The notes under the pieces were generated by a model that worked only from the letters and a program-made list of their open reading frames with translations, was not told where the DNA came from and did no database searches. This document shows, piece by piece, positions 2,663 through 17,897 of a DNA stretch of 64,000 bases. Within the stretch, counting starts at the first letter, position 1; the number at the start of each line of letters is the position of its first letter. Made by a program: the position numbers and the translations under genes. This DNA is from a virus, in the IMG/VR virus record IMGVR_UViG_3300047369_000650, positions 1 to 64,000 of that record, one strand, 5' to 3'.

Positions 2663-4015
2663 ATGCCAACTAAAGCTTTTGCAAGAGCCAAATTATTAAA
2701 CAGAAATAATACTATTTCAATAAATAATTTATCAGATGATTTACCTATTACAGATGTTATAACTTCTGTAAATGATCTACCTGCTTCTGGTGCTTTAGGA
2801 GAACAAGCGTTTGTTGAAGGATCTAATAGATTATATATGTGGAACGGTACTGGCTGGTATAATGTGGCTCTTATAAATGAATCTCCGGCATGGGATTCTG
2901 GTGGTCAACCAAATGCTACTTATAATTTAAGTTCAGATAGCCCGCAGACTTCAACTACTGTTACTCTGGCAGCTTCTGATCCAGAAGGCCTTCCTATTTC
3001 TTATACTTATGTTACTGGTGGTTCTATGGATAGTATAGCAACAGTTTCACAAGATTCGTCCGTATTTACTATTACTCCTAAAACAGAAGCTCAGGCGCCT
3101 GATGGTGGTACAGGAACAATTACTTTTAGAGCAAGTGATGGTATAAACATTCTTCCATATCAGTCTACATTTACACTTACGTTTATTGTTGAAATGAATG
3201 ATATAGATAATTCTACTTTAACAAGAACAACTAATTTACAGGCTATGTCTGGAAGAACTATAGGTGGTCTATCTTTTAGTGCAGACGGAACTAAATTTAT
3301 TGCTGGTATGAAAACATCTGATCCTAGTAATCCTATGTGCTGGTACTATACATTAACAACGCCATGGGATCTTAGCACAGGAACAAGACAATCTACTACT
3401 TTTGGTGTAGATAGCTGGACATTACAAAATGTTGTTGGGGTTAATGTAAATAGCGGTCAATGGTTTACTGGCTGGCATATGACTAGTGATGGTGCTTATT
3501 TGTTTACAACAGAAGCACATTCTGCAGCAGTAAGAAGATGGGATTTTGGAACACCATATGATCCTACCACACTAACATATTCGGGATATACAGCTAACTT
3601 TGGATCTGGTGCAGCTAGAAACACTGGTGTATATTTAAGCCCAGATGGTCATAATCTTTTTATAAGCAATCATTATTATGATTATGTAGCTCATGTGTAC
3701 CTATCCACAGCCTTTAGACCAGATACTAGAGGATCTGCTACTATAGGATATATAAGTGATAATGTTATACAAGATGTTATTTTAAGTGACACAGGACTGA
3801 AACTATTTACTGTGTCTGAAACCAATAATGTAATTAGACAATGGAATTTATCTACTGCTTGGGATTTGCATTCCACTTCTTCAGGCACTGATCAACTAGG
3901 AACTGGAGATTATACACATAGTGTAGGAAGTCAACAGGCTGTTTGCTTAAATACTGCTGATGGTGATGAATTTTTTGTAGGCAACGGTTTAGCAGTAAAA
4001 ACATACACAACTTAA
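2663..4015 (+). CDS. Virion adhesin-like protein: shared N-module plus WD40-like beta-propeller
   Basis: 450 residues. Residues 1 to about 175 repeat the N-module of the previous gene (GEQAFVEGSNRLYMWNGTGW, then a cadherin/Ig-like stretch). The rest looks like a beta-propeller. Blade-like units carry (S/T)xDGxxLF and W(D/N)(F/L)xT(A/P)xD patterns, for example LSPDGHNLFISN and VIRQWNLSTAWDL. It starts 5 nt after the preceding stop and is followed by a late promoter at 4025. The swap of LamG for a propeller on the same base suggests exchangeable binding heads on a common virion anchor. No enzymatic motif is seen. Confidence 0.7.
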   Translation: MPTKAFARAKLLNRNNTISINNLSDDLPITDVITSVNDLPASGALGEQAFVEGSNRLYMWNGTGWYNVALINESPAWDSGGQPNATYNLSSDSPQTSTTVTLAASDPEGLPISYTYVTGGSMDSIATVSQDSSVFTITPKTEAQAPDGGTGTITFRASDGINILPYQSTFTLTFIVEMNDIDNSTLTRTTNLQAMSGRTIGGLSFSADGTKFIAGMKTSDPSNPMCWYYTLTTPWDLSTGTRQSTTFGVDSWTLQNVVGVNVNSGQWFTGWHMTSDGAYLFTTEAHSAAVRRWDFGTPYDPTTLTYSGYTANFGSGAARNTGVYLSPDGHNLFISNHYYDYVAHVYLSTAFRPDTRGSATIGYISDNVIQDVILSDTGLKLFTVSETNNVIRQWNLSTAWDLHSTSSGTDQLGTGDYTHSVGSQQAVCLNTADGDEFFVGNGLAVKTYTT

Positions 4016-16514: not shown

Positions 16515-16747
16515 TGGAAAAGTACGATTTAGATGTAATTGTAAAAGGCAATAAACTTCCTCGTCATGGTTCACCTCAAGATCGTGGTGGTGCTGATGCT
16601 TACTACCATCGCCCTTATGATCCTCATTATTATGTCGGCGCTTCTATTACTTCAGAAAGAGTAGAAAAAGACAACATGACCGTTGGTGAGATTGAAGCTT
16701 ATAAGTATGGCTATGAAAATGAAGATGATAGAAAAGATTGGGGTTAA
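16514..16747 (+). CDS. Conserved small marine phage protein, unknown
   Basis: 77 residues in TAATG overlap with the previous gene. The central pattern GSPQDRGGADAYYHRPYDPH, followed by MTVGEIEAYKYGYEN, is conserved in T4-like marine phages as far as I recall. It is Tyr- and His-rich and probably soluble. Its last codons abut the second copy of the 20-nt promoter repeat. Confidence 0.62.
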   Translation: MEKYDLDVIVKGNKLPRHGSPQDRGGADAYYHRPYDPHYYVGASITSERVEKDNMTVGEIEAYKYGYENEDDRKDWG

Positions 16748-16765
16748 TGCATTTTAGGGGTTTAC
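16746..16765 (+). repeat. 20-nt direct repeat, copy 2
   Basis: Identical to 16285-16304. It overlaps the stop of the preceding gene and ends in the -35 of the promoter at 16760. Confidence 0.85.
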
Positions 16766-16788
16766 AAGCTATTAAAAATATGCTATGT
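16760..16788 (+). promoter_or_regulatory. Early promoter upstream of gene 16822
   Basis: TTTACA (16760-16765), 17 bp, TATGTT (16783-16788). The leader carries AAGAATCGGAAAG. Confidence 0.72.
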
Positions 16789-16821
16789 TAGTAATGTAAA
16801 AAGAATCGGAAAGAATATAAA

Positions 16822-17124
16822 ATGACTATTGCTAAAACACAGAATGACCGTCTTGCTCTTATCAAAGAAATCGCAGAGCGTCGTAAAGCAGAAAAGAAAG
16901 CTGAACGTGCTCGTCAGATTAAAATGTATGAAATTAAAGAGAAAGCCAAAAAAGCTCGGTTTGCAATGTTACAAGCACGTAAGAAACGCGAAGACCCTCT
17001 TGCAACACTAAATGTAAAAGAAGGTGAAAATATTAATCAATATACCGATCAATCAAAGTATGCTAAAAAATATTATGGAGAAACTCTATATGAAACAACA
17101 AGATATGATAACGAATGGGATTAA
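16822..17124 (+). CDS. Basic coiled-coil protein, unknown
   Basis: 100 residues. Residues 8-58 are a highly charged Lys/Arg/Glu/Ala helix (IKEIAERRKAEKKAERARQ), likely a coiled coil or RNA-binding helix. The C-terminal part is polar and Tyr-rich (YAKKYYGETLYETTRYDNEW). It is driven by the promoter at 16760 and followed by the hairpin at 17130. No family is assigned. Confidence 0.6.
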   Translation: MTIAKTQNDRLALIKEIAERRKAEKKAERARQIKMYEIKEKAKKARFAMLQARKKREDPLATLNVKEGENINQYTDQSKYAKKYYGETLYETTRYDNEWD

Positions 17125-17129
17125 TAATT

Positions 17130-17148
17130 AAGAGTCTAAGACTCTTTT
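17130..17148 (+). terminator. Hairpin after gene 16822 (weak terminator or switch element)
   Basis: A perfect 7-bp stem AAGAGTC/GACTCTT (17130-17136 and 17140-17146) with loop TAA is followed by only two more T. Its 3' arm shares bases 17142-17146 with the long stem of the RNA candidate, so the two structures exclude each other. Confidence 0.6.
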
Positions 17149-17325
17149 ACTCAACGTCCGTGCAGAGAGAACCGGGCTTGAAAGCAACGTCTCACGAGAA
17201 TAATTCGCCTGTGAAATATCAGTGTCGTGAAAACGTGGAGATGCTAGTTTCAGTCAAATTAGAGCGGCAATGTCAATAAGGCCGTGCAAGGAGACTGGAG
17301 ATACTAGGGGTGTTGAGTAAAGGAG
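17142..17325 (+). ncRNA. Candidate structured regulatory RNA upstream of mazG
   Basis: An ORF-less stretch that is about 48% G+C by hand count (17149-17318), well above its AT-rich neighbours. Nt 17142-17155 pair with 17312-17325 over 14 bp (one G-T), covering the MazG Shine-Dalgarno AAGGAG (17320-17325). Inside, CTAGT (17244) pairs with ACTAG (17303), CAGTC (17251) with GACTG (17293), and GCGGC (17264) with GCCGT (17281). A left domain may pair GAGA (17167) with TCTC (17190). CCGTGCA occurs twice (17158, 17282). It could be a riboswitch-like leader or a separate small RNA. I recognise no known class. Confidence 0.6.
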
Positions 17326-17332
17326 TTTTAAT

Positions 17333-17617
17333 ATGAAAGATAGTCCAATTAATAAACTTCAGCAGCTAATGATTATTACTGCAGAAGAATGTGGAGAACT
17401 TACTCAGAGATGTAGTAAGATTATTCGTAAATATAAAAAGTTTTCTGAAATAGAAGACGATCAAAAAAACAAACTTCTTGAAGAAGTTGGTGATGTTTAT
17501 TGTATGATTGATTTAATGTGTGAGCATAATGTATTAGATTGGAAACATATCTATGCTAGAAGCTCTGCTAAAAAAGAAAAACTTAAAAAGTGGAGTACTT
17601 TAATAGATGGTAAATGA
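17333..17617 (+). CDS. mazG: MazG-like nucleotide pyrophosphohydrolase
   Basis: 94 residues, a single MazG domain. The metal-binding pattern is ExxE at 19-22 (EECGE) and ExxD at 51-54 (EEVGDV), separated by a basic helix. The family cleaves NTPs or dNTPs to monophosphates, and phage MazG has been proposed to affect nucleotide pools or ppGpp signalling. AAAGGAG lies 7 nt before the ATG and is the part masked by the stem of the RNA candidate. It overlaps the next gene by 11 nt. Confidence 0.85.
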   Translation: MKDSPINKLQQLMIITAEECGELTQRCSKIIRKYKKFSEIEDDQKNKLLEEVGDVYCMIDLMCEHNVLDWKHIYARSSAKKEKLKKWSTLIDGK

Positions 17618-17897
17618 TATTAAAAAAATGACAGAAACTCTTGTGATTGATAAACTTAAAAATACATCAGAGGGTTGGATTGGAACAAGCGGAAGTATAA
17701 TTATTGATTTAGGCTTAGAAACATGCAATAATGAATTTGATGATTTTGTATTTCACGCTGTATCAAATATCTATCGTAATAATTTACTAAAGCCCTTTGG
17801 TAAAAAAATGGTAAAATTGGGTTATAAAAAAGAATATAGTCGAGGAAAAAATCGTCCTGGCAATCTCTTTAGAATTGAAAGTTGTATTGATGGATAA
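17607..17897 (+). CDS. Hypothetical protein
   Basis: 96 residues, starting inside the end of mazG (ATGGTAAATGA). It is mixed alpha/beta with a basic C-terminal half (KKMVKLGYKKEYSRGKNRPG) that could contact nucleic acid. No motif is recognised. Its end overlaps the next start by 8 nt. Confidence 0.55.
   Translation: MVNDIKKMTETLVIDKLKNTSEGWIGTSGSIIIDLGLETCNNEFDDFVFHAVSNIYRNNLLKPFGKKMVKLGYKKEYSRGKNRPGNLFRIESCIDG

What the first reader, a model, noticed from the sequence alone, without database searches (positions are those of the whole stretch)
17130..17333. Switch-like structured RNA in front of mazG
Between gene 16822 and mazG lie about 170 nt with no useful ORF and about 48% G+C in an AT-rich genome, a mark of structured RNA. 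Hand folding gives a 14-bp stem between 17142-17155 and 17312-17325 (13 Watson-Crick, one G-T) that buries the mazG Shine-Dalgarno. Its 5' arm shares bases with the hairpin 17130-17146, so only one of the two can form: hairpin formed means ribosome site free, long stem formed means site blocked. A nested set of stems lies inside. This fits a riboswitch-type or trans-regulated leader controlling a nucleotide pyrophosphohydrolase, or an excised small RNA whose ends pair. I recognise no known class.
Basis: partly seen in the sequence, partly recalled or inferred. Interest (0 to 1): 0.85.

Follow-up and report, generated by a model that had tools for sequence, protein, structure and literature searches.

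The report
New paired-end phage RNA before mazG
The stretch before mazG is one copy of a previously undescribed family of folded RNA, found here in about 90 uncultured-virus contigs, whose ends pair tightly and one of whose loops is always self-complementary, so it probably works as a free-standing RNA pair that in this phage also covers the start signal of the next gene.

Summary
In detail: the 14-bp stem, the 17130-17146 hairpin and the buried Shine-Dalgarno (SD) are as described, and the fold beats every shuffle (z = -3.7). But it is not a mazG riboswitch. It is one copy (17137-17330) of a conserved 136-221-nt RNA found in about 90 IMG/VR contigs (the three capsid-typed ones are T4-like), without Rfam match and not found in isolated phages, plasmids or 84,980 bacterial/archaeal genomes. 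A covariance model with 47 pairs shows compensatory changes at 25. In 36 of 69 non-redundant contexts it carries no SD: it sits 3-7 nt before tRNA genes (10 cases), sometimes behind its own sigma-70-type promoter, or before a terminator. In 33 contexts, the window's among them, the 3' arm of the closing stem carries an SD, mostly that of an adjacent gene (at least seven unrelated genes); a competing hairpin occurs in 24 of these against 1 of 36 others. One loop is self-complementary in all 76 distinct sequences through five different palindromes, pointing to kissing homodimers. Best reading: a new phage ncRNA family, comparable in kind to GOLLD/ROOL, here lodged in an mRNA where folding or excision competes with translation of mazG. 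Function unknown; nothing was tested experimentally.

The parts
17137..17330 (+). whole RNA element, closed by the terminal stem P1 (model match 17140-17327)
   Evidence: model R1 match, E 1.2e-37, only copy in the 177.5-kb record; fold z -3.7
17130..17146 (+). competing hairpin HP0, AAGAGUC(UAA)GACUCUU; its 3' arm is the outer 5' arm of P1
   Evidence: sequence; hairpin present in 24 of 33 SD-bearing copies against 1 of 36 without SD, p = 5e-10
17137..17159 (+). 5' arm of closing stem P1
   Evidence: compensatory changes at 9 of 21 P1 pairs in alignment A1 and 11 of 21 in A2
17308..17330 (+). 3' arm of closing stem P1, containing the mazG Shine-Dalgarno AGGAG at 17321-17325
17160..17187 (+). 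hairpin P2 (17160-17163 with 17184-17187)
   Evidence: compensatory changes, e.g. GUG/CAC to GAA/UUC in L195
17172..17175 (+). palindrome CCGG in the P2 loop, proposed kissing-loop (homodimer) site
   Evidence: self-complementary in 76 of 76 distinct RNAs: GGCC 36, GAUC 22, CCGG 11, GUAC 4, GCGC 1, two with a G-U pair; no consistent intramolecular partner
17189..17242 (+). P3 and its exchangeable inner module (about 17194-17237)
   Evidence: 5 of 5 counted P3 pairs compensated; module replaced by a short hairpin or absent in other copies and present in other, unrelated RNAs
17244..17307 (+). P4 (17244-17247 with 17304-17307; 17251-17255 with 17293-17297)
   Evidence: compensatory changes CCAG/CUGG and CAGUC/GACUG
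17264..17285 (+). P6 hairpin with the most conserved loop, AAUGUCAAUAAG
   Evidence: compensatory G-C to A-U in L323 and L326
16822..17124 (+). upstream ORF, 100 aa, no Pfam or PHROG match
17333..17617 (+). mazG-like pyrophosphohydrolase gene, 94 aa
   Evidence: PHROG 4856, E 2.2e-17; Pfam MazG only E 0.02, below its cut-off

Best explanation
The element is one member of a new family of phage-encoded structured non-coding RNAs of about 136-221 nt. Its two ends pair in a stem of about 20 bp (P1) that defines the RNA. Inside are hairpin P2, whose apical loop is always self-complementary, an exchangeable domain P3, and a conserved core P4-P6. In many phages it is a free-standing RNA gene, directly in front of tRNAs (so that 5'-end cleavage of the tRNA would also make its 3' end; inferred), in some cases behind its own promoter, or in front of a terminator. 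Two copies probably join by kissing of the palindromic P2 loops (inferred from covariation). In the window and about half of the contexts the RNA lies between genes in an mRNA, and the 3' arm of P1 contains a Shine-Dalgarno, usually that of the adjacent gene. There, forming P1 (and perhaps excising the RNA) closes that start site, while a 5' hairpin that takes up the 5' arm of P1, probably helped by ribosomes finishing the upstream gene whose stop codon lies at or in that hairpin, reopens it (inferred). Structure, distribution and co-occurrence are shown here; dimerisation, processing, translational effect and the task of the RNA in the phage are inferred or unknown.
For: Covariation: A1, 23 of 50 listed pairs with changes on both sides, 97.1% of cells paired against about 37-45% for slid controls, 0 of 500 shuffles as good (two of the 50 are the loop palindrome); A2, 25 of 47 pairs over 76 distinct sequences. 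Spread: 90 model matches in 88 fetched loci of IMG/VR contigs; Gp23 capsid gene in G000, G011 and G057, three of the four records above 170 kb tested. Free-standing copies: tRNA gene begins 4-8 nt after the P1 end (3-7 nt spacer) in 10 copies; TTGAC-type promoters right upstream in L092, L095, L111, L320; terminators after L119, L207, L224. In SD-less copies P1 is still complementary but with other sequence (AAUAGUC instead of AAGGAGU). SD and HP0 occur together: 24 of 33 against 1 of 36, p = 5e-10; after collapsing by upstream context 9 of 13 against 1 of 28, p = 1.8e-5. P2 loop: 76 of 76 self-complementary with five Watson-Crick palindromes and two G-U intermediates; background palindrome rate 6%; of 88 variable 4-column windows the only one that is always palindromic. 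HP0 overlaps or directly follows the upstream stop codon (read from sequence).
Against: No expression data: that the RNA exists as a separate molecule is inferred from context. Palindromic loops could serve something other than a dimer. Four close relatives of the window locus (L004-L007) have lost the P4b-P6 core but keep HP0, P1, P2, the module and mazG, so in that lineage the cis role may be the one under selection, or the copy may be decaying. 9 of 33 SD-bearing copies lack HP0, and not all of the 33 have an intact start codon next to them (L102, L124). The SD-closed form is more stable than the HP0 form by 1.7-7.4 kcal/mol where both can form. The window's own tRNA genes lie at 95.5-96.1 kb, far from the element.
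Confidence: 0.62

Rival explanations
1. Cis-regulatory leader only: a riboswitch- or protein-controlled element that tunes translation of mazG and other small early genes; no separate RNA is made.
For: SD in the P1 arm with normal spacing to an adjacent ATG and a competing hairpin in most SD-bearing copies; core-less relatives keep exactly these parts before mazG.
Against: 36 of 69 contexts have no SD in the arm, yet P1 and the whole core are conserved; copies stand before tRNAs and terminators; downstream genes are unrelated.
Confidence: 0.15
2. Mobile DNA element with terminal inverted repeats (MITE-like), its RNA fold a by-product.
For: Changing genomic position relative to the same neighbour genes, inverted-repeat ends, loss and exchange of internal parts.
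Against: The end repeats differ between copies but stay complementary, with G-U intermediates; internal helices covary too. One full-length copy per record, apart from short degenerate tandem remnants in L095 and L160.
Confidence: 0.08
3. Self-cleaving or self-splicing ribozyme that frees itself from tRNA or mRNA precursors.
For: Ends meet in a stem; a highly conserved unpaired loop; lodged directly against tRNA genes.
Against: No Rfam ribozyme or intron match for the window copy, even at E 10. Catalysis could not be tested.
Confidence: 0.07
4. Retron-type RNA (paired ends like a1/a2) used by a reverse transcriptase.
For: Paired-end architecture of similar size.
Against: No RVT_1 match in 14 records that carry the element, including the three T4-like genome-sized ones; controls ring.
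Confidence: 0.02

Closest known systems
GOLLD and ROOL RNAs (phage/prophage ornate RNAs; PMC12286853)
   Same: Phage-encoded structured RNAs of unknown function, often near tRNA genes; multimers joined by kissing loops (there shown by cryo-EM, here inferred from a palindromic loop).
   Different: This RNA is 136-221 nt against about 660-800+ nt, has no Rfam match to them at gathering score, and about half of its contexts lie inside mRNAs with an SD in the closing stem.
T4 small stable RNAs rnaC and rnaD (species 1 and 2)
   Same: Small RNAs of 139 and 119 nt in the tRNA operon of a T4-like phage.
   Different: No meaningful match of model R1 in the T4 region even with filters off; T4 copies lie at the far end of the cluster, after the tRNAs.
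phi29 packaging RNA (pRNA), from own knowledge
   Same: Small phage RNA with paired ends and intermolecular loop-loop contacts.
   Different: pRNA uses two different complementary loops, not one palindrome; no Rfam hit here.
Translational riboswitches and thermosensor leaders
   Same: An SD-closing stem and a mutually exclusive hairpin in SD-bearing copies.
   Different: Not tied to one pathway or gene; the closing stem is conserved where there is no SD at all.

Membership tests
Any Rfam 15 family | covariance-model match at gathering score | tested here: not met
   0 hits over the 64-kb window at gathering score; at E up to 10 on 16700-17700 only chance hits outside the element; in 14 related loci only tRNA and tmRNA
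GOLLD / ROOL | sequence and structure match to the family model | tested here: not met
   no match at gathering score
GOLLD / ROOL | encoded near phage tRNA clusters | tested here: met
   10 non-redundant copies 3-7 nt before a tRNA gene; not so in the window's own phage
GOLLD / ROOL | homo-oligomer through kissing loops | not testable with these tools
   only indirect: always self-complementary P2 loop
Riboswitch / mazG leader | consistent association with genes of one pathway | tested here: not met
   mazG, MRTVHYVG-, MTWTVTTQ-type ORFs and several small membrane ORFs follow; tRNAs in others
Riboswitch / mazG leader | conserved alternative pairing that controls SD access | tested here: inconclusive
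   the alternative pairing is conserved: HP0 in 24 of 33 SD-bearing copies against 1 of 36; its effect on SD access was not tested, and the closed form is thermodynamically favoured
Retron | neighbouring reverse transcriptase | tested here: not met
   no RVT_1 in 14 records
T4 rnaC/rnaD | homology to the T4 RNAs | tested here: not met

The most novel reading that the evidence does not exclude
A homodimeric phage RNA that lives two lives: a free RNA gene at the head of tRNA clusters and an mRNA-embedded form in which making the dimeric RNA and translating the next gene exclude each other, assembled from exchangeable RNA domains shared with other undescribed phage RNAs.
Probability: 0.35. Interest if true: 0.88.

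Novelty: new variant of a known kind. Interest (0 to 1): 0.72.

Why it matters
It adds a small, well-supported structured RNA family to the few phage RNAs of the GOLLD/ROOL kind. It is short enough for ordinary biochemistry, carries a built-in, easily mutated dimer test, and links phage tRNA clusters with translational control of early genes. Families like this stay invisible to protein-based annotation and, as here, to collections of isolated phages.

Tried and rejected
mazG-specific riboswitch: rejected, downstream genes vary. Known Rfam class: none. DNA similarity in isolated phages and plasmids: none (one search gave only 10-15% query coverage at E of 3 or worse). Bacterial/archaeal genomes: 0 hits for the core 24-mer; the 10 module hits there are chance matches without the surrounding structure. 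H-type pseudoknot or alternative hairpin UUAGUU/AACUAG (cols 109-114/122-127): 96% paired but no compensatory change, left open. Retron: no RT. T4 rnaC/rnaD homology: none. Three literature searches on phage structured RNAs gave no description of this RNA in the listed titles and abstracts. The recurrence of the core loop CGGCAAUGUCAAUAAGNCCG after another gene in L200-type contigs was seen but not explained.

Full report
WHAT IS THERE. The region folds far better than shuffled sequence (-63.1 against -48.1 +/- 4.0 kcal/mol, z -3.7). No Rfam family matches the window at gathering score; with a laxer threshold on 16700-17700 three chance-level hits appear, none overlapping the element. No tRNA is in the window. 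The window is part of a 177.5-kb IMG/VR record with T4-like baseplate, SSB and NrdA genes and a Gp23 capsid gene.

A FAMILY, NOT A LEADER. Relatives of mazG and of the upstream gene 16822 showed the element in other positions: before mazG in L004-L009, but before other genes in L013-L017 and L088. Pattern scans of IMG/VR with two conserved stretches and two relaxed ones gave about a hundred contigs. A covariance model (R1) built from 49 sequences finds the window copy at E 1.2e-37 and nothing else in its 177.5-kb record, and 90 matches in 88 fetched loci. Blastn found nothing credible in INPHARED phages or PLSDB plasmids, and the core 24-mer is absent from 84,980 GTDB species genomes. The family is thus known here only from uncultured viruses. 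Of four records above 170 kb tested, three are T4-like by capsid gene.

STRUCTURE. Closing stem P1 (about 20 bp), hairpin P2, variable P3, P4 in two parts, and hairpin P6. In A1 23 of 50 listed pairs have changes on both sides and 97.1% of cells pair, against about 37-45% when the partner is slid by 1-3 columns; no shuffle reaches any measure. In A2 it is 25 of 47 pairs over 76 distinct sequences (this alignment was fitted to the structure). Much of P1 changes between copies and stays paired. P6 gained support from L323 and L326, where G-C became A-U. P3 is absent, a short hairpin, or an approximately 45-nt module. In L004-L007 the core P4b-P6 is lost while HP0, P1, P2, the module and the outer P4 pairs remain.

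A SELF-COMPLEMENTARY LOOP. The four bases in the middle of the P2 loop are self-complementary in all 76 distinct sequences: GGCC 36, GAUC 22, CCGG 11 (window), GUAC 4, GCGC 1, and GGCU and UCGG once each with a G-U pair. In the longer loops the palindrome extends to 6 or 8 (UGAUCA, CCGGCCGG, CCGUACGG, CAGCGCUG). Of 88 variable four-column windows in A1 it is the only one that is always palindromic; the background rate is 6%. No second copy of the 4-mer serves as a consistent partner within the RNA (the GGCC near P6 stays GGCC in most copies when the loop changes). The simplest reading is pairing between two identical RNAs, as in retroviral dimer initiation sites and in GOLLD/ROOL; the G-U intermediates speak for RNA rather than DNA. 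This is inference.

TWO LIVES. Of 69 non-redundant contexts, 36 have no SD in P1. There a tRNA gene begins 4-8 nt after the end of P1 in ten (Pro, Asn, Trp, Thr); TTGAC-type promoters lie right upstream in L092, L095, L111 and L320; L119, L207 and L224 end in a GC-rich terminator. In 33 contexts the 3' arm of P1 contains GGAG, in most of them at normal spacing before an ATG; the following genes include mazG, a 68-69-aa MRTVHYVG protein, a 66-aa MTWTVTTQ protein, a 73-aa protein and several membrane peptides of 29-44 aa. In a few (L102, L124) no adjacent start codon was found, and in others the contig ends. A 5' hairpin competing for the P1 arm is present in 24 of these 33 and in 1 of the 36 others (p = 5e-10; 9 of 13 against 1 of 28, p = 1.8e-5, after collapsing by upstream context). 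The hairpin sequence changes with the arm (GAGUC/GACUC, GAGUU/AACUC, AGUAG/CUACU) and it overlaps or directly follows the stop codon of the upstream ORF. At equilibrium the P1-closed form is favoured by 1.7-7.4 kcal/mol where both can form (7.3 in the window copy), so the hairpin by itself is a kinetic or ribosome-assisted opener rather than a balanced switch.

MECHANISM PROPOSED. Shown: conserved fold, palindromic loop, both contexts, and co-occurrence of SD and hairpin. Inferred: a discrete RNA delimited by P1, its 3' end made at the tRNA 5' end or by cleavage in P1; dimer by P2; in mRNA copies, folding or excision competes with translation of the next gene, and ribosomes ending the upstream gene favour reopening. 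Unknown: what the RNA does for the phage. A multimeric scaffold or decoy like GOLLD/ROOL is a guess by analogy.

COMPARISON. GOLLD and ROOL are phage RNAs near tRNA islands that form homo-oligomers by kissing loops and have no known function (PMC12286853). This RNA resembles them in kind but is several times smaller and unrelated by model. T4 rnaC/rnaD lie in a T4-like tRNA operon but are not homologous. A retron is disfavoured: no reverse transcriptase in 14 records.

LIMITS. Contexts are not fully independent; the 45-base clustering only partly corrects for shared descent. Patterns used for the scans require conserved stretches, so more distant members are missed, and conservation inside those stretches (parts of P6 and P4) is partly imposed by the search. 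The P2 and HP0 features were noticed in the same sequences on which they were then counted, so the p-values are descriptive. No transcript data were available.

Noticed in passing
L091, L100, L104, L108, L131, L139: The inner module CUGGUGAAUAUA(UU)CGCCCGUGAAAUAYCGGUGNCGUGAAAACCAG also occurs inside other, unrelated RNA-like regions near phage tRNAs and, in L139, alone between a gene and a terminator; no convincing Rfam match around it in L108 and L100. It looks like a portable RNA domain.
   Followed up: partly
L200, L201, L203, L204, L209, L210, L212, L214, L219, L221, L225, L228, L230, L231: The core hairpin CGGCAAUGUCAAUAAGNCCG recurs just after the stop codon of a small gene behind a conserved CCCUGCAGUGUGCGUA, in what look like other phage genomes.
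   Followed up: no
L092 9451-9796, L227 6599-6949: Phage-encoded permuted tmRNA (alpha-type) in contigs that also carry the element.
   Followed up: no
L095 420-530 and L160 5901-5994: Degenerate second copies of the element in tandem with an intact one.
   Followed up: no
L004-L007, about 2700-3013 in locus coordinates: Close relatives of the window locus carry the element without its conserved core, and a small membrane-protein-like ORF between the upstream gene and the element that the window lacks.
   Followed up: partly
L142 13454-13670; L187 3857-4077; L196 9931-10151: P3 carries extra hairpins or a longer insert, so this domain tolerates large insertions.
   Followed up: no
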